From assembly GCF_000815225.1 (NCBI RefSeq), contig NZ_CP010427.1, positions 930,001-994,000 of the forward strand: DNA of 64,000 nt, written 5' to 3'. The notes below the pieces were generated by a model. It ran no database searches and had not been told where the DNA came from. It worked only from the letters and a program-made list of their open reading frames with translations. The DNA comes from Allofrancisella guangzhouensis. Lineage in GTDB: Bacteria > Pseudomonadota > Gammaproteobacteria > Francisellales > Francisellaceae. Shown here piece after piece: positions 16,293 to 51,604 of this stretch. Position 1 is the stretch's first letter. Every line of letters begins with the position of its first letter. The translations under genes and the position numbers were made by a program.

Positions 16293-17405
16293 ATGAAAAA
16301 AGTCTTGATCTTAGGTGCTGGGCGTGTAGGTTCTTTAGTGTCATGTTTGCTTGTAGATAGTGGTCAATACATTGTCCATTTGGTTGATAAAGCTGCATCT
16401 GAAGATAAACCAACTTTAGAGAAAAATAGTTCAAATCTTGAATATATCGAATTAGATGTAACTAATACAGAAAAATTAGAAAGGTATGCTAAAGATAATA
16501 ACTTTGATGCAGTAGTTTCTTGTTTGCCTTTTTATTTCAATAAAGGCATAGCAAGCTTAGCTGCTAAGTTAAACCTTAATTACTTTGACTTAACTGAAGA
16601 TATTGAAACAACAAAATATATTAAAGATCTGGCATTTACAACGAATAATCTTTTTGCTCCTCAATGTGGCTTAGCACCAGGGTTTATTAGTATTGTAACT
16701 AATAATCTTTTGAGTGAATTTGAGCAGGTTGACACAGTACGTATGCGGGTGGGAGCTTTACCTCTTAATGTTTCAAATACGCTTCAATATGGTTTAACAT
16801 GGTCTACTGAAGGTTTAATAAATGAGTACGCTAAGCCTTGTGAAGCTGTAGTAGGTGGGCAAAAAAGGATTCTAGCACCATTAGCTGATATTGAAGAGAT
16901 TAAGATAGATGGGTTGACTTATGAAGCTTTTAATACTTCAGGCGGTGTTGGTTCTATGATTGAGACTTATAAAGATAAGGTCAAAAATATGAATTATAAA
17001 AGTATCCGTCATCCAGGACATTGTGAAAAAATGAAGTTTCTAATGCAAGACATGAAGCTTAGCGATGATTTAGGTTTAATGGTCAAAATTATGGATAATG
17101 CTCTTCCACGTATTAATCAAGATATAGTACTGATCTATGTTTCAGTAGATGGAATTCGTAAAGGCCTTAAGTCAGAACGACATTTTGCCCAAAAATACCC
17201 TTCTAAAATTATATTTGAAAAGCGTTTTTCAGCTTTACAACTAACTACAGCAACAAGCCTCTGTGTAACTATAGATATCATGTTAAATAAACAGCAAAAA
17301 GCTTCTGGGTTTATCAACCAAGAATCTATTTGTTTAAAAGAGTTTTATAGTAATAGATTTGGAGGTTACTACAAAAATTCAGGTCTTTTGATACAAGCTG
17401 AATAG
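16293..17405 (+). CDS. saccharopine dehydrogenase family protein (saccharopine or lysine 6-dehydrogenase)
   Basis: 370 residues. N-terminal Rossmann fold with GAGRVGSLVSCLL (8-20), then the saccharopine-dehydrogenase catalytic domain (QCGLAPGFISIV; SIRHPGHCEKMKFLMQDM). It would yield 2-aminoadipate 6-semialdehyde, either from saccharopine (LYS9 type) or directly from lysine (lysine 6-dehydrogenase type). No lysine-ketoglutarate reductase is in the window, which leaves the second reading attractive. A good ribosome site (AAGGAAG) precedes the ATG. The ALDH7 gene follows 9 bases later and a DUF1338 gene after that, which defines the pathway. A distant paralogue lies at 48.2 kb. Confidence 0.85.
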   Translation: MKKVLILGAGRVGSLVSCLLVDSGQYIVHLVDKAASEDKPTLEKNSSNLEYIELDVTNTEKLERYAKDNNFDAVVSCLPFYFNKGIASLAAKLNLNYFDLTEDIETTKYIKDLAFTTNNLFAPQCGLAPGFISIVTNNLLSEFEQVDTVRMRVGALPLNVSNTLQYGLTWSTEGLINEYAKPCEAVVGGQKRILAPLADIEEIKIDGLTYEAFNTSGGVGSMIETYKDKVKNMNYKSIRHPGHCEKMKFLMQDMKLSDDLGLMVKIMDNALPRINQDIVLIYVSVDGIRKGLKSERHFAQKYPSKIIFEKRFSALQLTTATSLCVTIDIMLNKQQKASGFINQESICLKEFYSNRFGGYYKNSGLLIQAE

Positions 17406-17414
17406 GAGATAATT

Positions 17415-18911
17415 ATGGGTATTTTAGAAAAACTTAATTTAGGTCTAGAAAATTATACGGTAAATGATAGTAGAAACACTATTGAGACCCTCAATCCATC
17501 TAATGGTCAAATTATTGCTAGAGTTGCAAATCATAGTGTTAAAGATATACAAGATGCTATTACAAAAGCTAAAGAAGCTTTTTTACAGTGGCGTCAAATA
17601 CCGGCTCCAAAAAGAGGGGAGTTAGTTAGGCTAATAGCTCAAGAGCTACGTAAAAATAAAGATTCTTTAGGTAGTTTAGTATCATTAGAAATGGGTAAAT
17701 CTAAACAAGAAGGTGACGGTGAAGTTCAGGAAATGATTGACATGGCAGATTTTGCTGTTGGTCAATCACGTATGCTCTATGGTGCAACTATGCATTCTGA
17801 AAGAGCTGAGCATAGAATGTATGAGCAATGGCACCCTTTAGGCGTAGTAGGGGTTATTTCAGCTTTTAATTTCCCTGTTGCTGTATGGTCGTGGAATGCG
17901 TTTTTAGCGGTGATATGTGGTAATACCGTAGTTTGGAAGCCTTCTGAAAAAACTCCTTTATGTTCTATTGCTGTACAAAATATTTGTCAAAAAGTTATTA
18001 AAGAAAATAACTACCCAGAAATTTTCTACACTGTTATTTCAAAGGATATAGAAGTTTCAAAGGCTTTAGTTAATGATGAAAGGGTAAGCTTAGTTTCATT
18101 TACGGGTTCAACAAAAGTAGGGCAAGATGTTGGACAGCAAGTGGCAAAGCGTTTTGGTAAATGTATCTTAGAGTTAGGTGGTAATAATGCAACAATAATA
18201 GATGAAACTGCTAATTTAAAGCTTGCTATACCTGGAGCTGTATTTGGAGCTGTTGGTACAGCTGGGCAACGTTGTACAAGCTTGCGTCGTCTTATAGTAC
18301 ACAAGTCTATTTATGGACTAGTCAAAGAAAAAGTACTTAATGCTTATAAGCAAATTAAAGTTGGTGATCCTTTGGATCAAAAAAATCTAATGGGTCCACT
18401 TATAGATCAAACTGCTGTTGACAATTTTATCAATACAGTTTCAAAAGCAAAAGAGCAAGGTGGTAAACTTATAATCGGTGGTAGACAAATTGAAAAGGAA
18501 GGTTTTTTTGTGGAGCCAACTATTATAGAAGCTAACAAAGATATGCCTATAGTAGCAGAAGAAAATTTTTGTCCAATTTTATATATTATGTCTTTTGAAA
18601 ATATAGACGAAGCTATTGAATTAAATAATTCAGGCAATTATGGACTATCAAGCTCTATTTTTACTAATAATTTACAAAATGCTGAAAAATTTCTCTCAGG
18701 TCAAGGTAGTGATTGTGGTATCGCTAACGTAAATATTGGTACTTCAGGGGCAGAAATTGGCGGAGCTTTTGGCGGAGAAAAGTATACAGGTGGTGGTCGT
18801 GAGGCTGGTTCAGATGCTTGGAAAGCTTATATGCGTCGGCAAACAAATACCATAAACTATGGTAAAGAGTTACCGTTAGCACAAGGTATTAAATTTAACC
18901 TGGAGGTTTAA
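17415..18911 (+). CDS. amaB: 2-aminoadipate 6-semialdehyde dehydrogenase (ALDH7 family)
   Basis: 498 residues, full-length NAD-dependent aldehyde dehydrogenase. ALDH7-type sequence: [40 protein letters not shown], general-base glutamate in LELGGNNA, catalytic cysteine in GQRCTSLRR, and NFCPILY. ALDH7 enzymes oxidise 2-aminoadipate semialdehyde to 2-aminoadipate. This fits the dehydrogenase gene before it (9-base gap) and the DUF1338 gene after it (4-base gap). The symbol follows the Pseudomonas name and is by function, not proven orthology. Confidence 0.86.
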
Positions 18912-18915
18912 GGTT

Positions 18916-19716
18916 ATGAATATAGATATTTTAAATAAATTATGGGAACAATATGTTGCTTTTAATCCTCATGTTACACAGATTTATGATTTGTTTGTCA
19001 AAGAAGGAGAAAACCCTATTAATGATCATATTGCATTAAGAACATTAGACGACCCAAGTATAGACATAAACATTTTAGCTGGAGTTTTTATAAGTAATGG
19101 ATATAGTATATGTGGAAATTATGAATTTGATGTTAAAAAACTAAAAGCAATACATCTTGAGCATACAGATGAAAATCAGCCAAAAGTTTTTATAAGTCAG
19201 TTATTGACAAAAGAGTTTAGCTCTTTTGTTCAGGAAACTATGAAAAAATGTGTCAAAGCTATCCCGCAAAAGCTGTTAGATAATAAAGAACAACTTTTGG
19301 TTTCAGGTACTAGTTGGGGTGATTTAAGTTATCAAACCTATACTAAGCTTTTAGAAGAATCTGAGTATGCAGCTTGGTTTTATGCATTTGGTTTTAGGGT
19401 AAATCATTTCACAGTGCTTATAAATGCTCTAAAAAACTTTGATGAAGTAGCACAAGTAAATGAATTCTTGAAACGAAATGGCATAAAGCTTAACTCTTCA
19501 GGTGGAGAAATAAAAGGCTCTCCAGCTGATTTGTTAGAACAATCAAGCACTATGTCTGGTTTGATAGAAGTAGATTTTATTGAAGGTAAGAAGACTATAC
19601 CATGCTGTTACTATGAATTTGCTAAGAGATACCTAGATAAAAATGGTAAGTTATATCAAGGTTTTGTAGCTAAATCAGCTGATAAGATCTTTGAGAGTAC
19701 TAATTTTAAGAGTTAG
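18916..19716 (+). CDS. DUF1338 protein, 2-oxoadipate dioxygenase/decarboxylase (HglS-like)
   Basis: 266 residues, shorter than Pseudomonas HglS. DUF1338 members of the vicinal-oxygen-chelate fold convert 2-oxoadipate to D-2-hydroxyglutarate with Fe(II) and O2. Likely metal ligands are His38 (in DHIALRT), His164 (RVNHFTVL) and Glu234 (CCYYEFAKR), with Arg42 four residues after the first His; Pseudomonas HglS uses His70/Arg74/His226/Glu294, the same order and a similar His-Glu spacing. Third gene of the lysine operon. The aminotransferase from 2-aminoadipate to 2-oxoadipate is not in the window. Confidence 0.82.
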   Translation: MNIDILNKLWEQYVAFNPHVTQIYDLFVKEGENPINDHIALRTLDDPSIDINILAGVFISNGYSICGNYEFDVKKLKAIHLEHTDENQPKVFISQLLTKEFSSFVQETMKKCVKAIPQKLLDNKEQLLVSGTSWGDLSYQTYTKLLEESEYAAWFYAFGFRVNHFTVLINALKNFDEVAQVNEFLKRNGIKLNSSGGEIKGSPADLLEQSSTMSGLIEVDFIEGKKTIPCCYYEFAKRYLDKNGKLYQGFVAKSADKIFESTNFKS

Positions 19717-40568: not shown

Positions 40569-42266
40569 ATGAATTCAGAAACAAAAAAAGATTTTAGCTC
40601 TTTAGGCTTAGATCAAAATATTGTAGATACTGTTATAAATTTAGGGTATGAGAACCCAACGCCAATTCAACAGTATGCTATTCCATATATATTATCGGGT
40701 AGAGATGTGCTAGGTCAAGCACAAACAGGTACGGGTAAAACAGCAGCTTTTGCATTACCATTAATTAATAATTTAGATCTGAATGATAAAAGCAGATCTC
40801 CACAGATCTTAGTATTGGCGCCAACTCGAGAATTAGCTATACAAGTAGCGGAACAATTTGAAGCTTTTGCAAAAAGTGTCACAAGTTTATCTGTTGCTTG
40901 TATCTATGGTGGACAAGAATATGGTTCACAAATAAGAGCACTTAAAAATGGTGTCCAAGTAGTAGTAGGTACTACTGGTAGAGTTATGGACCATATTGAA
41001 AAAGGAACACTAAAGCTAGATAATCTAAGAGCGTTAGTATTAGATGAAGCAGATGAAATGCTTAGAATGGGTTTTATTGACGATGTTAGATGGGTTTTAA
41101 GTCACATATCTGATGATTGCCAGAGACTACTTTTTTCAGCAACTATACCGGAAGATATAGCTGATATTATAAAAGAGTATTTAAGAAATCCATGTAAAAT
41201 ACAGGTTAAAGCAAAAACCAAAACAGCTAATACAATTACACAAAAATTTATAGTAGTTAAAGGTTTTAGAAAAATAGATGCTTTAGACAGACTATTAGAA
41301 ATAGAAGAAACTGATGGTGTAGTAATATTTGTTAAAACTAAGACAAGTACAATAGAAGTAGCAGATAATTTAAAAGCTCTTGGTTATAAAGTAGCTGCTA
41401 TAAATGGTGATATGCAGCAATCTCAAAGAGAATATATTGTTGAGCAATTTAAAAGTGCTAGATCTAACATTTTAGTTGCTACTGATGTTGTAGCTAGAGG
41501 TATAGACCTTGAGCGTATTAGTCATGTGATTAACTATGATATGCCAAATGATGAAGACACTTATGTTCACAGAATTGGCCGTACTGGTAGAGCAGGGCGT
41601 GAAGGAGTTTCTATTTCTCTAGTAACATTAAAAGAAATGAGATTTTTACGTTCGCTTGAGCGATTTACTAATTCAAAACTAGAAGAAGTATTTATGCCAA
41701 GTGCTAAAGAACTTGCTGATAGTAGGATTAATGACTTTAAAAATAGAATAACCTCTGCTCTAGAAAAAAATAAATCTCTAGACAAGTATAAAGAAATAAT
41801 AATTGAAATACGTGATCAGTTAGAGCTGGATTCAGAAGATTTATTAGCAGTACTTACACTTTTAGCACAAGATAAGAAAGGCTTTTTTCCAAGGGAAATT
41901 CAGGCTAAAGAAGAAAAGAGAGCTCCTGTTAAAAGAGATGAAAGGACATCCAGACCTAGTGATAGATTTAATGATAGAGACAGAAATAATAATTCTAGGT
42001 TTGACAAAAAACGACCAAAGAGAGTAGATATAGATCTAACTACCTATAGAATAGATGTGGGTCGTGAAAATGATGTACAACCAAGAAATATAGTTGGTGC
42101 TATAGCAAATGAAGGTGGCATAGATAGTAAACATATCTGTAATATATCTATAGAAAAAGACTATACTCTAGTTGATTTACCAGCTAATTTGAGTGCAAAA
42201 GTTATAAATCATCTTAAAAAAGTTTGGGTAGCAGGTAAAAAATTAAATCTTACTGAGCATAGGTAA
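40569..42266 (+). CDS. deaD: DEAD-box RNA helicase DeaD/CsdA
   Basis: 565 residues. ATP-dependent RNA helicase for ribosome assembly and mRNA turnover, often cold-linked. Motifs in order: Q motif (GYENPTPIQQYAIP), AQTGTGKTAA, PTRELAIQVA, TTGRVMDHI, DEADEML, FSATIP, VATDVVARGIDLE and HRIGRTGRAG. The linker after residue 440 is Arg/Asp/Asn-rich and is followed by a DbpA-type RNA-binding domain (YRIDVGRENDVQPRNIVGAI). The accessory cluster begins 321 bases further on. Confidence 0.95.
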   Translation: MNSETKKDFSSLGLDQNIVDTVINLGYENPTPIQQYAIPYILSGRDVLGQAQTGTGKTAAFALPLINNLDLNDKSRSPQILVLAPTRELAIQVAEQFEAFAKSVTSLSVACIYGGQEYGSQIRALKNGVQVVVGTTGRVMDHIEKGTLKLDNLRALVLDEADEMLRMGFIDDVRWVLSHISDDCQRLLFSATIPEDIADIIKEYLRNPCKIQVKAKTKTANTITQKFIVVKGFRKIDALDRLLEIEETDGVVIFVKTKTSTIEVADNLKALGYKVAAINGDMQQSQREYIVEQFKSARSNILVATDVVARGIDLERISHVINYDMPNDEDTYVHRIGRTGRAGREGVSISLVTLKEMRFLRSLERFTNSKLEEVFMPSAKELADSRINDFKNRITSALEKNKSLDKYKEIIIEIRDQLELDSEDLLAVLTLLAQDKKGFFPREIQAKEEKRAPVKRDERTSRPSDRFNDRDRNNNSRFDKKRPKRVDIDLTTYRIDVGRENDVQPRNIVGAIANEGGIDSKHICNISIEKDYTLVDLPANLSAKVINHLKKVWVAGKKLNLTEHR

Positions 42267-42587
42267 GTTAGTAAGAAATAATAAATTTCTATGAGTTCAA
42301 ATAATATTCCCTTAAAAAACCTAGCTAAGTGGTACATGAACAAAAAGTTATCTTAGCCAAATATATGTACTTGCTAGAGAAATAAATCCTAAAAAGTTGA
42401 GCAAGTTTTAACCAATCTTAATAAAATTATTCTAAAATTCTTTTTTTTATATACAACATTTTACTAAGTTTTTTAACATATTTAATTTTTAAATGTTATT
42501 GCAAATTTAATATATATTTTTTATTCAATTTGTGTTTAAATAAAAATACCTTTTATATAAAACAGTTAATTTTACCTAAGATTTTGA
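42267..42587. other. AT-rich intergenic region leading into the hydrazine-type cluster
   Basis: 321 bases without a gene. A candidate promoter for the cluster is TTGTGT (42530-42535), 18 bases, TATATA (42554-42559), which would put the start of transcription about 20 bases before the monooxygenase ATG. No clear Fur box, riboswitch or repeat was found. The upstream 200 bases hold no recognised frame. Confidence 0.4.
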
Positions 42588-42634
42588 ATGAGTAATAAAG
42601 TTTATGATTATATATTACTTGGGCTTGGCCCAAG

Positions 42635-42641
42635 TAATTTA
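42635..42641. repeat. 7-bp target-site duplication, left copy
   Basis: TAATTTA immediately outside the left terminal repeat; an identical copy lies at 43836-43842 directly after the right terminal repeat. Both copies are exact, so the insertion is probably recent. Confidence 0.85.
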
Positions 42642-42660
42642 CTGGAGTTACGGACTTTTG
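42642..42660. repeat. IS left terminal inverted repeat (19 bp)
   Basis: CTGGAGTTACGGACTTTTG; it matches the complement of 43817-43835 without mismatch. The pairing ends there: the next bases inward differ. Confidence 0.92.
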
Positions 42661-42662
42661 TT

Positions 42663-43745
42663 TTAAGCAGTCATTTTGAATATCTTTTTCATTTTTATAA
42701 TTTCCCTATGGCTAGCTTGATTGGCGGCGATTAACATTTTTCTTTTTAAAGCATAGTGGTTTTTATTTGATACAAGTTTTAATTTTTCAAGCTCACAATA
42801 AGCCCCTATAGAAAGCCCTATGTGGTTAAGTTGCGTGACAGCTATAGATGTAGGTGATTTAGCAAGACTAGCATTTTGTTTTATACTTCGATGATAAACT
42901 TCTATATTCCATCTTTTTTGATAGATATCTTTTATGTGGTTACTCTCTAGGTTCAGATCATTAGTAATTAAATAAATCTCACCTGTTGAATTGTCTCCGT
43001 TTTTGAAGACTTGGCGAGTAACCACAAGACTATATTTTATATCTTTTAAATAAATTTTTATAGTCTCATTTTCTAGCAATCCTAATTCATCTAACCTACA
43101 GTAGTTACCAGCAAGAGCATTAGCTTTACTCTTAGCAACTAAACGATTATTCGCTATACCTATTACATACGAGAGTTTATGTTTGTTAAAAAATCTTAAA
43201 TTATCTTTAGAAGCAAAATACCTATCAGCTACTACATAATCAAAACTAGAGAAATTTTTAATAATTTTCAATACCAGTTTTCTTGCCAGTTCATTAATTG
43301 TATAGCGTGCTTTACGCTTTAGACGTTCTCTACCTGCTTTATCTTTTTCTACTACAAAGTTTTCCTTAGTTTGTACTTCAAAGCCTACAGGAATATTAGC
43401 ATCTCCAACATGGATTAAAGCACTAATAAGATTTATGCCTTTAACTGCTCTGCCTACAGAATGGTCATAAAACCAGTTTACTACCTCATTGACCTTACTA
43501 TCAGATTTAGGACTTATTGTATTGTCTATAGATAATATCTTTGGCTTATCTTTGTAAGTTTTTAAAATGCCTTTACCTTTTAACCAGACATATTTACTCT
43601 CGTAGCTACCAACTTTTAACATCCTGGAAAAACTATCATGTTTTACTAGTTCATCTAACATACTTGAACACTCTGTCGCACTTGCTTGGGAATTTTGGCA
43701 TAACAAATATTCAGTATATAAATTCGCTAATTCACGTTGTTTCAT
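42663..43745 (-). CDS. IS4-family transposase
   Basis: 360 residues, full length. DDE transposase: first Asp in ILSIDNTISPKSDSK (near residue 75), second Asp in VVADRYFASKDN, and the IS4 signature Y-(2)-R-(3)-E-(6)-K in YQKRWNIEVYHRSIKQN. N-terminal helical domain (LANLYTEYLLCQNSQ). It fills nearly the whole element, and no frameshift or stop was found, so it may still be active. Confidence 0.93.
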   Translation of the reverse strand: MKQRELANLYTEYLLCQNSQASATECSSMLDELVKHDSFSRMLKVGSYESKYVWLKGKGILKTYKDKPKILSIDNTISPKSDSKVNEVVNWFYDHSVGRAVKGINLISALIHVGDANIPVGFEVQTKENFVVEKDKAGRERLKRKARYTINELARKLVLKIIKNFSSFDYVVADRYFASKDNLRFFNKHKLSYVIGIANNRLVAKSKANALAGNYCRLDELGLLENETIKIYLKDIKYSLVVTRQVFKNGDNSTGEIYLITNDLNLESNHIKDIYQKRWNIEVYHRSIKQNASLAKSPTSIAVTQLNHIGLSIGAYCELEKLKLVSNKNHYALKRKMLIAANQASHREIIKMKKIFKMTA

Positions 43746-43816
43746 TTTTAGAACATAACTTCGTTGATGTAACTATAAATTAACACATAGAAAACTTTTT
43801 CGCTTTAACTATAGGG

Positions 43817-43835
43817 CAAAAGTCCGTAACTCCAG
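43817..43835. repeat. IS right terminal inverted repeat (19 bp)
   Basis: CAAAAGTCCGTAACTCCAG, the exact complement of the left repeat, followed at once by the target copy TAATTTA (43836-43842) and the resumed monooxygenase frame. Confidence 0.92.
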
Positions 43836-45039
43836 TAATTTAGGGCTAGCAGCTTTACTCTATAAGACTAGTATAGATTTTTTAGTTATAGATAAAAAAG
43901 AAAGATTTTGTTGGCATGGTGAATCCCTTTTATATCATGCAAGATCGCAAACAAGTTTTCTAAAAGATCTAGTAACACCTATTGATCCAACACATCCATT
44001 ATCTTTTTTATCATATCTTCACAATCATGGACTTTTATATGTTTTTTTATCAAGAAATATTACTAACGTTTATAGAAAAGAAATGGAAAATTATTATGTC
44101 TGGTGTTGTAATAAGATTAGAGAAGAGAAAGATAATATACGTTTTTCTACAGAAGTAATTGGTCTTCATGATTGTGGAAAATATTTTAGGGTTGATACAA
44201 GTAAAGAAGTTTTTAAAGCTAAAAATTTAGTGGTTGGTTTAGGAATAGAACCAATTGTTATAGAAGAATTACACTCTAATAAAAATGTAATACATAGTTC
44301 CCAATATTTAGATTACAAAAATAGAGGTTTATTAAACGATAAAAAAATTTCTATCGTTGGTGGAAGCCAAAGTGGGGCGGAAATCCTTAACGATATTATT
44401 GATAGTAATATTAGCAAAGACGTTTCTTTATATTCAAGAAGAATTAATATGAAGGCATTACAAGAGACTAGCTTTGATAACGAACTTTATAATCCTTCTT
44501 TTGTTAGGTATTTCACAGATTTACCAGACGCAAGAAAAGATGATTTATTAAAAAACGAAATATATACTTCAGATGGGATAACACAAAACTTATTAGATGA
44601 GTTATATAATAAAATATATAGCTTAAAGTTTGTTGACAACATTGATATAGATGTAAATATTTATTGTAGCCATAATTTGAGAAGTATAACTGAAAAAGGT
44701 GGAAGTTTAGAATTATTTTTTGAAGACATAAACCTTGGTGTTGATACTTATGTTTATAGTGATATAGCAATATTATGTATAGGTTACAGAAATAAAGCTT
44801 TCGATTTTCTAGAAAATATACAGTATACGAGAAAACACAGAAAAGTTTTCCTAGATGTAAGTAATAATAAGAAAATATACATCCAAAATGGTTTTAGGAG
44901 GACTTTTGGATTAGGTGATAGTAATTTAAGTTTATCTGCTTATAGAAACTCTATGATTATAAACGATATATTAGGATACGATAAGTACAAAGTGCATCAC
45001 GAAAAAATTCTTTCATATTCTTACTAGAGAGGGCACAAG

Positions 45040-46245
45040 ATGAAACAAAAACACATAATTATAATATGTGATGGATATTCTAGTGGACACTTTATTCCTA
45101 AGCTTTTCAATGGGTTAGGATATAGTTGTTTGCACGTTACTAGTAGTGATAGCTATAATCATAAAGTTTCACAAAGCACTTTTTGCAAAATGGATTATAT
45201 AGAGAGTTTTATAATAAATGATGATAAGTCTTATGTAGGTTTTTTGGATGCTATAAAGAATAGAAGAGTGTTATGTGCTATGGCTGGGTCAGAGTTTGGT
45301 ATATTAATGGCAGATAAAATAAACAAAGACCTTAAAATAGTTTGGCATGACTTTTCAAAAGGTGTTGTAAAAAGAAATAAGTATTTAATGCATGAGCAAT
45401 TGAAGTATGACAATTTAGCATACGCAGGTCAGGTTCTAACTTCTAATTTGGATGAAATTTTTTGTTTTTATGAAAAAAATCAAAAAAAAAGAATAGTTTT
45501 GAAACCTGTATCTAGCGCATTATCAGATAGTGTTTTTTATTGTGACACTGAAACGCAAATTAGAGAAGCTTTTAATTATATTAAACTAAAAAAGGATGTG
45601 TTTGGAAAAGATAACAAATCTGTTCTTGTTCAGCAATATTTACAAGGTCAGCAATATATTGTTAATACGATTTCATCAAAACGAAACCATTATGTAACAG
45701 ATATATGGGGAGAGGTGGCTGAGAATGATGATATGCCTTCAAATGATATATATAGTGAATTAATTCACTATAATGACTTTCCATATAAAATATTAGAAAA
45801 GTATTCTTTTGATGTTCTTGATTCCCTTGGGATTTGGAATGGTCCAGCACACCTGGAAATAAGGCTTACTGAAAACGGACCCATTTTGGTGGAGTGTGGT
45901 GCTAGGCTAGGAGGAAGTGTAGATTTTTCGTTAACGCAGAGCATATATGGTTTATCTCAGCTATCTCTACTTCCGTTTGCTACTTTTAACACAGATTTAT
46001 TTCTGACTTTGACTAGAGATCGTAGTAATGGAAAGCTTAAGTATGCTAGATACGTATATTTATCTTCTCACGTTAAGGGGAAAATAATAAAAGATATTAA
46101 TTTTAGTGTTTTCAATGATATTGAATCTCTATTTAGTATGAAAATGAGTATTAAAAAAGGTGATTTATTACAACCTATAAATAGAGCTTTGGGAATAGGG
46201 CGACCAGGTTATATATATCTTGTTAATAATGATAAAAAAAATTAG
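45040..46245 (+). CDS. ATP-grasp ligase, amino-acid ligase type
   Basis: 401 residues. ATP-grasp superfamily of the carboxylate-amine ligase kind. The C-terminal half has the family hallmarks: nucleotide lysine and loop in RIVLKPVSSALSDSVFY (near 150), VQQYLQGQQYIVNT, and the metal region GPAHLEIRLTENGPILVECG followed by ARLGGSVD. These enzymes phosphorylate a carboxylate and join it to an amine. Placed between the N-monooxygenase (12-base gap) and the cupin/MetRS gene, it could couple an amino acid to the hydrazine product. Substrates are unknown. Confidence 0.85.
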   Translation: MKQKHIIIICDGYSSGHFIPKLFNGLGYSCLHVTSSDSYNHKVSQSTFCKMDYIESFIINDDKSYVGFLDAIKNRRVLCAMAGSEFGILMADKINKDLKIVWHDFSKGVVKRNKYLMHEQLKYDNLAYAGQVLTSNLDEIFCFYEKNQKKRIVLKPVSSALSDSVFYCDTETQIREAFNYIKLKKDVFGKDNKSVLVQQYLQGQQYIVNTISSKRNHYVTDIWGEVAENDDMPSNDIYSELIHYNDFPYKILEKYSFDVLDSLGIWNGPAHLEIRLTENGPILVECGARLGGSVDFSLTQSIYGLSQLSLLPFATFNTDLFLTLTRDRSNGKLKYARYVYLSSHVKGKIIKDINFSVFNDIESLFSMKMSIKKGDLLQPINRALGIGRPGYIYLVNNDKKN

Positions 46246-46300
46246 AAAGAGACTATGTTAAAACGCTCGAAACAACCAAAGTATTTTTTGAGGACTTATT

Positions 46301-48170
46301 ATGTTAGTTAATAATGAGGTTAGAATACCTACGAATGCTAATGAAGGTTCAATCTTATTAAAACCAAATGAGTATACTCGCATACAAAATCATCACGACA
46401 CAGAAATATGGATGATTGAAAAAGGAAAAGGGTTACTGTATTCACAAGGCCAATATACAAACGTTTTCAAAGGAAAGGTGATCAAATTTGAGCCTTTTGA
46501 AGATCATATTTTAATCAATACAGAAACAAACGATCTTGCTCTAAAATCTTTTTGGTATGTTAATCAAAAAGATATCAATAAAGCTATTGAAAATAAGAAA
46601 GGAAAACCCCAAAAATATATCGTTGGGTGCGCTTATCCTACACCAAATGGACCTCTACACCTTGGACATATTTTTGGGCCTTATATTATTTCAGATGTGA
46701 TTAATAGGTTCTTTAAAAAAAATGGGGTGACTTCGTTTTTTGCAACAGGAACATACGGTTACACAAACCATATAGAAAAAACTTCAAAGCTACTTTATAA
46801 AGAGACCGTTGAAAAATTTGAAGAAAGTATTTCCTCCAGTTTTAGAAAGCTTAGTCTAAGTTTTGATTATTTTCTAAAACAATTTCCAGAAAATAAAACT
46901 TTTTTAAATAGCTTAAATGTTTTTAAGGATTTTATTCTAAGAAAAGATTTAGTAAAAGAAAAAGAAGTTTTAAACCAGTTTAATGAAAAGACAGAAACTT
47001 TTATTGATGAGAGTTTTGTTGAGGGCCTTTGCCCTAATTGTCGCCAGTTAACTATAGCTATTGAATGTGAAAACTGTGGTATGATGCAAGATGCTGCTAA
47101 AATTATTAATCCCATACATTCTGTAACTAAAGAAAAATTATTAAAAAGAAAAGTAAAAAAACTGTACTTAAATTTCGACGCAGACTATATAAACAAAATA
47201 AAATTATATCTTTTTAGTGAAAAAAATGTAGTTTTCTCATATTTAATAAAACAAATAGATCAATATATTGAAAATAAGCAATTAGAGGATATTCCTATAT
47301 CAGTTTTTAAGACTAATGGAACAACAATATACGAAGGGCAAAAGCTATCAATTGCTGCTGAGAGGGCTTTAAGGTTTTTTGATGTTATTAAAACAAACGA
47401 AGATTACGACAAGTATTTATTTTTCTGTGGAATAGATAATACATTTATAAGTGCTATAGCAAGCCCTTATATTCTTAAAAAAATGGGGATTGATTATACA
47501 AAACTACCTATTTGTGTAATAAATAGTTATACCCTGTTAAATGGGCAAAAATTTTCTACTAGTAGGAATAATGCTATTTGGCTAGAAGATATTAAAGATT
47601 ATAATATTAACTTACTCAGGCTATATTATGCCAAAACTAAAAATTTGGGGAATGTTTCATTTAACCTTGGATTGTTCAAAAAATTTTGTACTAATACGTT
47701 GAATCTTTGGGTTAGTGTATTCTCTTCGCTCAAAAAAATTGTTGATAGTATCAATATGGATAAGCTTGAGGCAGGAAACTGGGACTCTCAAGATATAAAT
47801 TTCTTCAGCTATGTAAATAATCTTAAAGAAATTACTGATAGAGAATATGAAAGCTTTAATTTAGAGAAAGTTTTTTTATATTATGAATTTTTTTTGTAAC
47901 CTTTTAACGTGTTATATAAACGATGTACACATGCTTGAACACTATGATAAAGATTCATATAGAACTAAAGCTTATCTATCAATTTATGGAATTAAAGAAT
48001 TATTCAGACTTATATATCCAATAACTCCAGATCTGTCCACAAAAATATTAGATTCTTTAGGATTGAGTATTTTTAAGGAAAGTAACAATATTTTAGGAGT
48101 AATCTTTATATCAGAAATCAAATTAGATTTATTAGCTTTATATATAAAGGAAATAAAAAATGAGCAATAA
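46301..48170 (+). pseudogene. cupin + methionyl-tRNA-synthetase-like didomain protein (hydrazine synthetase family), frameshifted near the C-terminus
   Basis: Two parts. Residues 1-85 are a cupin (HHDTEIWMIEKGKG with His31, His32, Glu35; FEPFEDH with His69). Residues 105-530 are MetRS-like: YPTPNGPLHLGHIFGPY (HIGH box 120-123), zinc knuckle Cys244, Cys247, Cys256, Cys259 and a KMSKS-like KFSTSR (417-422). This architecture is that of hydrazine synthetases such as Spb40, which join N6-hydroxylysine to an amino acid with ATP. The frame stops at 47899 after an 8-T run (47888-47895); with seven T the sequence continues through FFCNLLTCYIND to 48170, about 622 residues, completing the helical C-terminal domain. 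A GAGG ribosome site precedes the ATG. Not the housekeeping MetG: the cupin and cluster argue against it. Confidence 0.88.
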
Positions 48171-49311
48171 ATTACTCCTAGTTGGATTGGGACAAAGCTT
48201 TAGCGGAATCGTTTACTATCTTGATCTTTTAGGAATTGAGAGTCTTACAATATCAGATATTGACAAGAAGAAAGAGCAAGCAACATTAAAGTATGTAAAT
48301 AAAAAATATCCCAATATAAAAGTAGATAATAATATTAGGCCCTATTCTTACTCTTTGGTTTTATTAGCTATAGATGGTAAATCCACACAGGCATTTCTTT
48401 ATAACAATGACAATTTCTCACTATTTAGGAGGAAAAGAATATTTGTTAGCTTAGGTAGACCTAACTATGATAGTGAAGAAGACTTTAACAAATTAAATAT
48501 TTACGTTAAATTACATAGCGCAGTCTTATTTTTTGGTTTTGGTTTAGAGCCTGGAATAACTGAAACTATGATTTACAATGAAATGAATAATAATATAAAC
48601 TCTAGTAAAATAGAGTGCTTTTGTGGTTGCATACCAAAAAAACCTACACCACCTTTGAATTACAATATTTTATTTGGTGATAAATTACCATATCATGATA
48701 GGCCTGCTATTTTTAAAAAGAACGGTCAAGTGTTATCAACTACGAGATATGCTTCTAAGGAAAATATATATGTAGAATCTATAGGAATTTTAGAGAGCTT
48801 TCATGATGGTTTATCTCCATATATGCTTAAAAGTAACCTAGCTGTTAGATTTTTAGACATAAAACAAAAAACAGTTAGATATCCTGGTTTTTATGATAAT
48901 ATTAAGCCCCTTTTAGATATGGGCATGTTTAGTGATACAAAAATTGATGAAATTGACTTAAGTTGCAATGACCTACTACATAAAATTTTATTTAAAAATA
49001 AAGTTTTATCTAAAGATCCAGATGATATAAGTTTTATATTTTTAGTATCTGGTAGAGAAAATAATAAAAAGTACACTTTGTTAAAGTCAGAATATGATAA
49101 CGCTTCTAAAATATCAGGAGCAATGAAGCTAACAACCTTCTTTTTTATTTATACCACATATCTACTACTTAATGGAATTCTAAATGAAGATTATAGTGGA
49201 GTTGTACTTTCATTTGAAGTTTATAAGAGTCAAAAAATATATGACTTTTTTATATCAGAATTAACAAACTTAAATGTAGGAAGTTACTATAAAGGAGACA
49301 TTGTAGAATGA
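48160..49311 (+). CDS. saccharopine-dehydrogenase-like NAD(P)-binding protein
   Basis: 383 residues. Rossmann start (LLLVGLGQSFSGIVYYL), then FGFGLEPGITETMI and TVRYPGFYDNIKPLLDMG, which match the positions of GLAPGFISIV and SIRHPGHCEKMKFLMQDM in the family member at 16293, so the two are distant homologues. In the hydrazine setting its likely job is to oxidise the lysine C6 of the N-N-linked intermediate, releasing a hydrazino acid and 2-aminoadipate semialdehyde, as saccharopine dehydrogenase does with a C-N bond. That is inference. Overlaps the previous frame by 11 bases and the GNAT gene by 4. Confidence 0.78.
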   Translation: MSNKLLLVGLGQSFSGIVYYLDLLGIESLTISDIDKKKEQATLKYVNKKYPNIKVDNNIRPYSYSLVLLAIDGKSTQAFLYNNDNFSLFRRKRIFVSLGRPNYDSEEDFNKLNIYVKLHSAVLFFGFGLEPGITETMIYNEMNNNINSSKIECFCGCIPKKPTPPLNYNILFGDKLPYHDRPAIFKKNGQVLSTTRYASKENIYVESIGILESFHDGLSPYMLKSNLAVRFLDIKQKTVRYPGFYDNIKPLLDMGMFSDTKIDEIDLSCNDLLHKILFKNKVLSKDPDDISFIFLVSGRENNKKYTLLKSEYDNASKISGAMKLTTFFFIYTTYLLLNGILNEDYSGVVLSFEVYKSQKIYDFFISELTNLNVGSYYKGDIVE

Positions 49312-49700
49312 GAATAACTCATAATGAAATGCCGACAATTGAAGCGATCATTAGTTTATATAAAGATTCTGGGATAATTCGTCCTATAGATGATTTTGAT
49401 AGAATAAAAATGATGTACAACAATTCTAATTTAGTGGTTTGTGCATATGAAGGTGATGAGCTTATTGGTATAGGTAGATCATTAACAGATTTTTCATATT
49501 GTTGCTATCTATCAGACTTAGCTGTTTCTAGAAAATATCAAGGCAAAGGAATAGGAAAGAAGATAATAGATTATATTAAAAATGTTATCACCTCAAAATG
49601 TACTCTTTTATTGCTGTCATCGCCATCTGCTATGGGTTTTTATGAAAAAATTAATTTAGACAAATCTGAAAATTGCTTTATGAAAAGAAGAGAGTTTTAA
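49308..49700 (+). CDS. GNAT N-acetyltransferase
   Basis: 130 residues, single GNAT domain. Acetyl-CoA site motif A is YQGKGIGKKIIDYIKN (near 80-95), preceded by the strand SDLAVSRK and followed by SSPSAMGFYEKINL. ATGA overlap with the gene before it. In the cluster it may acetylate a hydrazine or amine, as tailoring or as self-protection. Small, complete, no oddities. Confidence 0.87.
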   Translation: MRITHNEMPTIEAIISLYKDSGIIRPIDDFDRIKMMYNNSNLVVCAYEGDELIGIGRSLTDFSYCCYLSDLAVSRKYQGKGIGKKIIDYIKNVITSKCTLLLLSSPSAMGFYEKINLDKSENCFMKRREF

Positions 49701-49704
49701 AAAA

Positions 49705-50895
49705 ATGTCTATTTCTTTTAAAAAAGCTGAGATTTTCATTGTAATAGTTGCCAGTATTGTTTTATTTACAGGGTTGTTAGGAACAGATATTATCCTTCCT
49801 GCTCTTCCAATAATATCAAAAGATTTACTAATTAATAATAAATATTCAGAATATATAATAACTCTTTATATATTAGGAGCAGGGATTAGTATTTTATTTT
49901 ATGGTCCTTTATCTGATAAATATGGAAGAAAACCAGTTATTCTAGTAGGGTTAACTATAGCTTTACTATCTAATCTATTTCTTTTCTTTTTTTCTTATAA
50001 TATTAACTTTATTTTATTTTTCAGGTTTATCTCCGGATTTGGCTCAGGCGTTTGTTTAGGTTTAATGAGGGTACTGATGTCTGATATTTTTGAAGGAAAA
50101 AAGTTTGTCATAGCAGCATCATATGCCACTACGTTTACTGGTTTATCTATAGTAGTGGGACCATTGATAGGTTCGTATGTAATGTCTTTAACCAGCTGGC
50201 GGGGCTGTTTTATTGTATTAATGTTTTTAATGTCCTTAAATATAATAATTGTGTCAAGAGTGCCAGAAACTAATCTTTATAAAAACACTACTTTAGCTAG
50301 TAAAAGTTTTTTTAAAGTATATACGGAGGTTGTTCTAAATAAACAATTTTTGAATTATATATGTTTATCAAGTATAGGATTTTCTACTATAAATATTTAT
50401 ACGATATCGTCGTCTTTTATAATACAAGAAACTTTTAGAATAGATACTCTTACATATGGGAAGTTGGTTGCAGCTAATGGATTCATGCTAATAATAGCGA
50501 GATTATTATTGCCAAAAAGTATCAAAAGGACAGGGATATCAAATTCAATTAGAATAGGAATAATCTCTCTCTTGATGACTGGAAGTTTATTAATATTGTT
50601 CTATAGTTTAAATATTTTGAATATAATTTGGTTTCTATTATTCACTGTAGGTATATTTATCTCATACACCTTTATAGTACTTCCTTCATCAGCTGGAGTC
50701 ATGAGTTCTGTTAAAGTAAACAAAGGAATTTTAGGTTCGTTATACGGAGCAAGTCAAATGATTTTAAGTTTTTTAATCTTATATATTTTTTCCAGTATAA
50801 ATGCTAGTAATTTAATTCTAATAACCTCGATGGTATATATTTTATTTGCTTTACTCTCATTTTGTGTGCTCTATTTGATAGAACATCAATTTTAA
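49705..50895 (+). CDS. MFS transporter, Bcr/CflA-type drug exporter
   Basis: 396 residues with about 12 membrane segments. MFS loop motif between helices 2 and 3: YGPLSDKYGRKPVILVG; LGTDIILPALPIISKDLL in the first periplasmic region is typical of Bcr/CflA drug/H+ antiporters. A second-helix-bundle motif (GPLIGSYVMSLTSWRGCF) fits too. Last gene of the cluster, 4 bases after the GNAT gene, and the obvious candidate for export of or resistance to the product. Confidence 0.9.
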   Translation: MSISFKKAEIFIVIVASIVLFTGLLGTDIILPALPIISKDLLINNKYSEYIITLYILGAGISILFYGPLSDKYGRKPVILVGLTIALLSNLFLFFFSYNINFILFFRFISGFGSGVCLGLMRVLMSDIFEGKKFVIAASYATTFTGLSIVVGPLIGSYVMSLTSWRGCFIVLMFLMSLNIIIVSRVPETNLYKNTTLASKSFFKVYTEVVLNKQFLNYICLSSIGFSTINIYTISSSFIIQETFRIDTLTYGKLVAANGFMLIIARLLLPKSIKRTGISNSIRIGIISLLMTGSLLILFYSLNILNIIWFLLFTVGIFISYTFIVLPSSAGVMSSVKVNKGILGSLYGASQMILSFLILYIFSSINASNLILITSMVYILFALLSFCVLYLIEHQF

Positions 50896-51031: not shown

Positions 51032-51604
51032 ATGCGTAATTATATCTTTATAGTTTCAGCTCCCTCAGGTGCTGGCAAAAGTTCTCTTTTAAAAGCTTTT
51101 TTGGGAACTCAAATCGGTAAAAGTAGTTTTTCAGTAGCAGTATCACACACAACTAGATTACCTAGAGTTGGTGAGACTAATGGTAAAGAGTATTATTTTG
51201 TAGATACATTGGAGTTTGAAAATATAATAAAAAAAGATGGCTTCTTAGAATATGCTAGAGTATTTAAAAACTATTATGGAACATCAAAAGCTGAACTAGA
51301 CAGATTATTAAAAGCAGGTAAAAATATAATCTTAGAAATTGACTGGCAGGGAGCACAACAGACAAGAATAATCTATAAAGATAAAGTCAAAAGTTTGTTT
51401 ATATTACCACCTTCTTTAAATGAGCTTAGAAATAGGTTAGAAGCTAGAAATACAGATACTAAAGAAACTATAGATTACCGTATGAAACAAGCTGAAAGCG
51501 AAATTGCTCATGCTAATGAATATGATTACCAGCTTGTGAATGATGATTTTGATAAGGCTTTAGTAGACTTATGTAAATATTTTAAAGAGAATACTAAAAG
51601 TTAA
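51032..51604 (+). CDS. gmk: guanylate kinase
   Basis: 190 residues. Phosphorylates GMP to GDP. P-loop SAPSGAGKSSLLKAF (near 9-23), the GMP-binding VSHTTRLPRVGETNGKEYYF, EWARVFKNYYGTS-like region (EYARVFKNYYGTS) and DWQGAQQTR. A TATAAT box lies 34 bases upstream (50993-50998). birA follows 2 bases after the stop. Confidence 0.97.
   Translation: MRNYIFIVSAPSGAGKSSLLKAFLGTQIGKSSFSVAVSHTTRLPRVGETNGKEYYFVDTLEFENIIKKDGFLEYARVFKNYYGTSKAELDRLLKAGKNIILEIDWQGAQQTRIIYKDKVKSLFILPPSLNELRNRLEARNTDTKETIDYRMKQAESEIAHANEYDYQLVNDDFDKALVDLCKYFKENTKS

What the first reader, a model, noticed from the sequence alone, without database searches (positions are those of the whole stretch)
42588..50895. Candidate hydrazine-forming (N-N bond) natural-product cluster
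Seen: six co-directional genes with tiny gaps or overlaps: an IucD/PvdA-type N-monooxygenase (split), an ATP-grasp ligase, a cupin fused to a MetRS-like domain, a saccharopine-dehydrogenase-like protein, a GNAT and a Bcr/CflA exporter. Known: lysine N6-hydroxylases paired with cupin/MetRS-like fusions (Spb38/Spb40 of the s56-p1 pathway; homologues in triacsin, formycin and pyrazofurin clusters) make N-N bonds between N6-hydroxylysine and an amino acid. Inference: the cluster makes a hydrazino acid, possibly coupled by the ATP-grasp ligase, acetylated and exported. I know of no such cluster described in this bacterial family, and the ATP-grasp/GNAT/MFS set looks unlike the actinomycete ones.
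Basis: partly seen in the sequence, partly recalled or inferred. Interest (0 to 1): 0.93.

Follow-up and report, generated by a model that had tools for sequence, protein, structure and literature searches.

The report
Broken hydrazine-making gene cluster
Six neighbouring genes in the water bacterium Allofrancisella guangzhouensis are predicted to have made a rare nitrogen-nitrogen (hydrazine) compound, probably from lysine and glutamate, but three of the six are now interrupted, so this strain likely no longer makes it.

Summary

Corrections: (1) the operon is broken: a 1,196-bp IS lies in the N-hydroxylase, and the ATP-grasp and cupin/MetRS genes change frame at A8 and T8 runs. (2) A Rhodococcus plasmid carries the same kinds of genes, ATP-grasp, GNAT and MFS included. 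(3) None of 29 other Francisellaceae genomes has the dehydrogenase; A. frigidaquae keeps the promoter, hydroxylase start, dehydrogenase tail and an intact GNAT around different genes at the same deaD-gmk site; A. inopinata keeps a smaller relic elsewhere.

N-N chemistry, substrates and product are inferred. A decaying member of a known kind, on an island whose core differs in a congener.

The parts
42425..42587 (+). Leader/promoter region of the operon, shared with A. frigidaquae
   Evidence: 90.4% identity over 42425-42641 to L118
42588..42640 (+). N-hydroxylase gene, 5' piece (begins MSNKVYDYILLGLGPSN, FAD-binding motif)
   Evidence: contiguous with the following piece in A. frigidaquae L118 and A. 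inopinata L128, which lack the IS there
42641..43836 (-). IS701-type insertion sequence inside the N-hydroxylase; transposase 42663-43745; target duplication AATTT at 42636-42640 and 43837-43841
   Evidence: transpos_IS701_2 258 bits, above cut-off 250; repeats; three full-length copies, 100% as rounded, in the genome
43837..45027 (+). N-hydroxylase gene, 3' piece (Lys/Orn N-monooxygenase); open frame to 45027; the listed ORF starts inside at 44083
   Evidence: PF13434 136 bits
45040..46245 (+). ATP-grasp L-amino-acid-ligase-like protein, 401 aa, lacking its C-terminal tail (tail in another frame up to the next gene start)
   Evidence: tail; A8 run 46234-46241
46301..47899 (+). Cupin + MetRS-like hydrazine synthetase, N-terminal 532 aa
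47883..48170 (+). C-terminal part of the same gene in another frame
   Evidence: (23.8 bits to the family profile)
48160..49311 (+). Saccharopine-dehydrogenase-like enzyme, 383 aa, frame intact; nucleotide-binding motif GCGNLG of most relatives reads GLGQSF here
49308..49700 (+). GNAT acetyltransferase, intact; intact copy also kept in A. frigidaquae
49705..50895 (+). Bcr/CflA-type MFS transporter, intact
40569..42266 (+). Left flank: DEAD-box helicase gene (deaD-like)
51032..51604 (+). Right flank: guanylate kinase gene (gmk-like); its 5' end is duplicated at the island edge in A. frigidaquae

Best explanation
This is a broken operon that most likely made a glutamate-derived hydrazine: a flavin N-hydroxylase would make N6-hydroxylysine, the cupin/MetRS protein would activate glutamate and join it to the hydroxylamine nitrogen, and the saccharopine-dehydrogenase-like enzyme would cut the adduct, an aza-analogue of saccharopine, to 2-hydrazinoglutarate and 2-aminoadipate semialdehyde. 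The ATP-grasp ligase would then couple the hydrazino acid to an amino acid, the GNAT would acetylate it or protect the producer, and the MFS protein would export it. Shown here: gene content and order, the family placement of each protein, the residues shared with glutamate-using enzymes, the three interruptions, the location at a variable deaD-gmk site, and partial copies in two sister species. Inferred: all substrates, the N-N product, the roles of ATP-grasp, GNAT and MFS, and that the strain no longer makes the compound.
Against: N-hydroxylase substrate is not settled: its 3' piece is about as close to the genome's own siderophore-type N-hydroxylase (152 bits, 32%) as to the Rhodococcus one (147 bits, 29%), its best solved relative is 6xbb, named only 'Monooxigenase', and the tree leaves it unresolved. 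The cupin has Gln29 where PyrN has metal ligand H50 (PyrN H50A kept about 82% activity). The dehydrogenase's nucleotide-binding motif is altered. Three genes are interrupted. The closest ATP-grasp relatives share no contig length with the cupin/MetRS relatives, and the window's GNAT finds no match in the Rhodococcus or Mesorhizobium loci, so these genes' link to the pathway rests mainly on position.
Confidence: 0.72

Rival explanations
1. An N-N pathway of the same enzyme type but with another amino acid (glycine, alanine, serine, tyrosine or aspartate) or another N-hydroxy amine instead of glutamate and lysine.
For: Hydrazine synthetases taking Gly, Ala, Ser, Tyr, and N-hydroxy substrates other than hydroxylysine, are listed in a review (PMC11705231, passages); the N-hydroxylase substrate is unresolved here.
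Against: The arginine and the missing aspartate are shared with the two glutamate-type enzymes in the tree, PyrN and Rhodococcus; no enzyme of proven Gly/Ala/Ser/Tyr use was in my set, so the contrast is indirect.
Confidence: 0.17
2. A hydroxamate siderophore operon: N-hydroxylase and GNAT make a hydroxamate, ATP-grasp joins the units, MFS exports.
For: N-hydroxylase plus GNAT plus MFS is a common siderophore set (recalled); the MFS has a below-cut-off match to FslD (108 of 500 bits).
Against: No NIS synthetase or NRPS among the six genes; no Fur-box-like site in the window at up to 3 mismatches; the genome already has a separate siderophore-type cluster with SbnF/IucA-like proteins, an N-hydroxylase and diaminobutyrate enzymes at G000:C1:406.8-416.6 kb; cupin/MetRS and saccharopine dehydrogenase have no place in such a pathway.
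Confidence: 0.05
3. A dead relic: the island arrived already partly broken and never worked in this lineage; only the GNAT has a present use.
For: Three interruptions; at its deaD-gmk site A. frigidaquae keeps only the hydroxylase start, dehydrogenase tail and an intact GNAT (118 of 130 residues identical; dN/dS 0.18).
Against: The IS is at 100% (rounded) in all three full-length copies and the two other breaks sit at A8/T8 runs, which reads as recent loss; dehydrogenase, GNAT and MFS frames are intact.
Confidence: 0.3
4. A second MetRS (tRNA-charging or editing) with unrelated neighbours.
For: Pfam names the domain tRNA-synt_1g.
Against: Cupin fusion, placement with PyrN, and a separate MetRS gene elsewhere in the genome (G000:C1:1618109).
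Confidence: 0.01

Closest known systems
PyrN, with PyrM and PyrL (pyrazomycin, Streptomyces candidus)
   Same: Cupin + MetRS-like fusion, N-hydroxylase, saccharopine-dehydrogenase partner; same clade, same arginine and loss of the aspartate
   Different: 24% identity in the structural alignment; none of the six genes here looks like a C-nucleoside gene; genes interrupted
Rhodococcus jostii RHA1 / DK17 plasmid cluster with cupin RHS1 (PDB 5UQP)
   Same: N-hydroxylase, MetRS-like, saccharopine dehydrogenase, ATP-grasp, GNAT, MFS and cupin together; the RHA1 MetRS-like protein uses glutamate (PMC8664883, passages)
   Different: Cupin and MetRS are separate genes there, with further genes (lysine 2,3-aminomutase, luciferase-like monooxygenase, AMP-binding, carrier protein, second ATP-grasp); different order; GNAT over three times as long and not matched by the window's. 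Its product beyond the adduct is not given in what I read
Mesorhizobium amorphae pM0123d four-gene set
   Same: MFS, saccharopine dehydrogenase, N-hydroxylase, cupin/MetRS in a row
   Different: No ATP-grasp or GNAT beside it; known here from annotation only
Paraburkholderia azotifigens, Pseudomonas sp. IT-347P, Photobacterium sp. Hal280 cupin/MetRS proteins (P0002, P0004, P0005)
   Same: Closest full-length named relatives, 36-37% identity
   Different: Full length; their gene surroundings could not be fetched
Spb38/Spb39/Spb40 (s56-p1), Tri27/Tri28 (triacsin)
   Same: Same chemistry class (PMC11705231, passages)
   Different: Glycine branch, with a flavin-dependent oxidase doing the cleavage instead of a saccharopine-dehydrogenase-like enzyme
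DdaF, dapdiamide A synthase / L-amino acid ligases
   Same: ATP-grasp family (225 bits; 30vh 366 bits)
   Different: Below the DdaF cut-off of 840 bits; substrates unknown

Membership tests
Cupin/MetRS hydrazine synthetases (PyrN/Spb40) | N-terminal cupin joined to a MetRS-like domain | tested here: met
   the Cupin_2 match itself is below the Pfam cut-off, but the cupin columns align across A1
Cupin/MetRS hydrazine synthetases (PyrN/Spb40) | Cupin residues needed in PyrN (H52, E56, H90) kept | tested here: met
   H31, E35, H69 by motif and equal spacing
Cupin/MetRS hydrazine synthetases (PyrN/Spb40) | Fourth metal ligand H50 (not essential: H50A kept about 82%) | tested here: not met
   Gln29 in the window; His in 23 of the 24 other cupin-bearing rows, the last (StrGKU) being poorly aligned there
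Cupin/MetRS hydrazine synthetases (PyrN/Spb40) | Groups with characterised members, apart from true MetRS | tested here: met
Cupin/MetRS hydrazine synthetases (PyrN/Spb40) | Forms an N-N bond | not testable with these tools
   no activity data
Cupin/MetRS hydrazine synthetases (PyrN/Spb40) | One uninterrupted reading frame in this strain | tested here: not met
   frames 46301-47899 and 47883-48170; bears on present function, not on descent
Glutamate / saccharopine-dehydrogenase type clusters (pyrazomycin, RHA1) | N-hydroxylase + cupin/MetRS + saccharopine-dehydrogenase-like gene together | tested here: met
Glutamate / saccharopine-dehydrogenase type clusters (pyrazomycin, RHA1) | Glutamate is the activated amino acid | tested here: inconclusive
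   residue pattern only; no assay
NIS hydroxamate siderophore operon | IucA/IucC-type synthetase in the operon | tested here: not met
   none among the six genes

The most novel reading that the evidence does not exclude
Allofrancisella carries a mobile natural-product island with fixed ends and an exchangeable core: a common promoter and N-hydroxylase start on one side and a GNAT on the other enclose a glutamate-hydrazine pathway in A. guangzhouensis and a different enzyme set in A. frigidaquae, the GNAT surviving as self-protection. The hydrazine version would end in a new acetylated, exported hydrazinoglutaryl dipeptide, the first N-N natural product of the Francisellaceae.
Probability: 0.25. 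Interest if true: 0.62.

Novelty: new member of a known kind. Interest (0 to 1): 0.45.

Why it matters
It puts the glutamate branch of hydrazine synthetases, with its saccharopine-dehydrogenase partner, into a small-genome family of aquatic and host-associated bacteria where my searches listed no such pathway in print. It gives a residue rule (arginine present, MetRS aspartate absent, dehydrogenase next door) that can be tested on named, intact relatives. The sister-species comparison shows such a pathway being lost and its core differing while the GNAT stays, a natural hint to which gene may protect the producer.

Tried and rejected
A class-wide draw of 369 genomes with the dehydrogenase profile gave G000 and one weak match; 398 genomes of the family of G190, chosen by a Pseudomonas-like 16S pattern (1 of 274 genomes), gave none at E 1e-30; a Vibrio-like 16S pattern found no genome to centre on in 274. 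The viral collection gave none, the phage collection one weak match. So the intact gammaproteobacterial clusters were not read.

A first tally of dehydrogenase neighbours used 10 hand-picked loci outside the clade; I replaced it by the recount over all 82 loci, which also covers L007, L009, L010 and L028, left out of the tree. Four loci (L030, L058, L073, L082) have weak dehydrogenase matches (31-41 bits) beside MetRS genes without a cupin; counted as 'not above 100 bits'. L004, L005 and other short loci end near the gene, so a dehydrogenase beyond the edge cannot be excluded. L001, L090 and L091 are the window itself and were not counted.

Sequencing error as the cause of the two frame changes was considered: of 14 A/T runs of 8 or more in the window, 12 lie in genes and 10 of these leave the frame open (compared by eye), and Illumina data were used (PMC4395051). 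Not excluded, but less likely. Slippage at the runs, which could give some full-length product, is not excluded either.

Fur regulation and a siderophore role were looked for and not supported. The N-hydroxylase tree does not tell lysine from other amines. The search for the hydrazine-synthetase query in plasmids listed 20 of 314 records.
Full report
What is there. The window is G000:C1:930001-994000 of a 1,661,527-base genome in two contigs; contig 1 is 1,658,482 bases, equal to the chromosome of Allofrancisella (Francisella) guangzhouensis 08HL01032T, which also has a 3,045-bp plasmid (PMC4395051, whole text). Between a DEAD-box helicase gene (40569-42266) and a guanylate kinase gene (51032-51604) lie six + strand genes: N-hydroxylase, ATP-grasp, cupin/MetRS, saccharopine-dehydrogenase-like, GNAT, MFS.

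What is broken. An IS701-type element of 1,196 bp with 20-bp inverted repeats lies in the N-hydroxylase after its first codons, with AATTT on both sides. The genome holds three full-length copies, 100% identical as rounded. A. frigidaquae and A. inopinata have the gene start without the IS. The cupin/MetRS gene changes frame where the 46301-47899 and 47883-48170 frames overlap, at a T8 run; the ATP-grasp gene changes frame after an A8 run, and its last ~21 residues lie in another frame. Dehydrogenase, GNAT and MFS frames are open.

The other genes. The ATP-grasp profile best fits an L-amino acid ligase (30vh, 366 bits) and the NCBIfam models PRK07206 (240 bits) and DdaF (225 bits), both below cut-off. 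Its five closest relatives (39-45%) share no contig length with the cupin/MetRS relatives. The N-hydroxylase 3' piece falls in a supported 8-row group with the Rhodococcus and two rhizobial N-hydroxylases and with four Francisellaceae ones of siderophore type, unresolved; lysine as substrate is inferred from the neighbours.

The resemblance is of kinds: the window's ATP-grasp profile scores 78 and 51 bits there, its MFS 31 bits, its GNAT nothing at E 1e-4.

Distribution and history. Of 30 Francisellaceae genomes, 1 (G000) has the dehydrogenase; 29 have some cupin/MetRS match, but beyond G000's own gene these score 18-81 bits and lie in frames of true-MetRS or larger synthetase length; 2 have the GNAT at E <= 1e-20. 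For the N-hydroxylase 3' piece 16 match, 15 of them through a gene about 30% identical, which in G000 lies in a siderophore-type cluster; remnants of this very gene were found only in G014 (68% over 119 residues, one stop) and G017 (96% over 23 residues). In the 16 other same-genus genomes the helicase and kinase matches are under 0.2 kb apart in 9, 0.4-1.1 kb in 3, and 3.4-12.6 kb in 4 (G014, G015, G017, G024): a variable site. In A. frigidaquae (L118) it holds, from the helicase side, two large genes, a second copy of the kinase start (258 bp, 97% identical to the intact gene's), the shared leader and hydroxylase start, then other genes (haem-oxygenase-like, PLP enzyme, FAD-NAD(P) protein, cupin, ZapE-like, TauE), then the dehydrogenase tail and an intact GNAT; no MFS match is there. 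In A. inopinata the deaD-gmk site holds other genes, while a relic with the hydroxylase start, an FAD-NAD(P) fragment and TauE lies elsewhere, between folate-synthesis and AMP-ligase genes (named by eye). So the island is older than the split of these species or has passed between them, sits at more than one place, and its core differs. GNAT dN/dS between A. guangzhouensis and A. frigidaquae is 0.18, against 0.16 for the kinase and 0.07 for the helicase; 0.27 for the 66-codon hydroxylase piece: consistent with selection to keep the GNAT working.

In print. The searches listed no paper on an N-N cluster in this family, in listings that showed 10 of 10, 20 of 43, 20 of 139 and 12 of 71 papers; PMC7431613 includes A. 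guangzhouensis and has no hit for biosynthetic gene cluster, siderophore or secondary metabolite (passages). Of PMC11705231, PMC13061610, PMC13274452 and PMC8724604 I read passages; of PMC8664883 passages, abstract and outline.

Verdict. A decayed operon that by family and residues is of the glutamate hydrazine type: known chemistry in a new family, with an interesting island of differing core around it.

Noticed in passing
L118:1346-7317 (A. frigidaquae, same deaD-gmk site): A different biosynthetic-looking set in the same island: haem-oxygenase-like protein (weak Pfam match), PLP enzyme (closest NCBIfam models aminotransferase A and GntC, both far below cut-off), FAD-NAD(P)-binding protein, cupin, ZapE-like ATPase, TauE permease.
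   Followed up: partly
L118:8158-10596 and L117:943-3027: Proteins with several C2H2 zinc fingers at the C-terminus, eukaryote-like in look, in A. frigidaquae (Pfam run, with a weak OTU protease match) and A. inopinata (by eye) at the same site.
   Followed up: no
L129:4843-14642 (G000:C1:406.8-416.6 kb): Siderophore-type cluster: two IucA/IucC-like proteins (one matching SbnF, one by eye), N-hydroxylase, diaminobutyrate decarboxylase and transaminase, MFS, with a Fur-like gene nearby (by eye); a similar N-hydroxylase occurs in 12 of 17 same-genus genomes.
   Followed up: partly
16293-19716: Lysine-breakdown-like genes: saccharopine/lysine-dehydrogenase-like, aldehyde dehydrogenase and a DUF1338-like protein (names by eye); could reuse the 2-aminoadipate semialdehyde that the island's dehydrogenase would release.
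   Followed up: no
L118:7792-8049 against L118:544-801: 258-bp duplicate (97.3%) of the kinase gene start at the island's far edge in A. frigidaquae, a likely trace of how the island integrated.
   Followed up: partly
plasmid collection: 187 Escherichia plasmid records have a MetRS-like match to the hydrazine-synthetase query; not examined.
   Followed up: no
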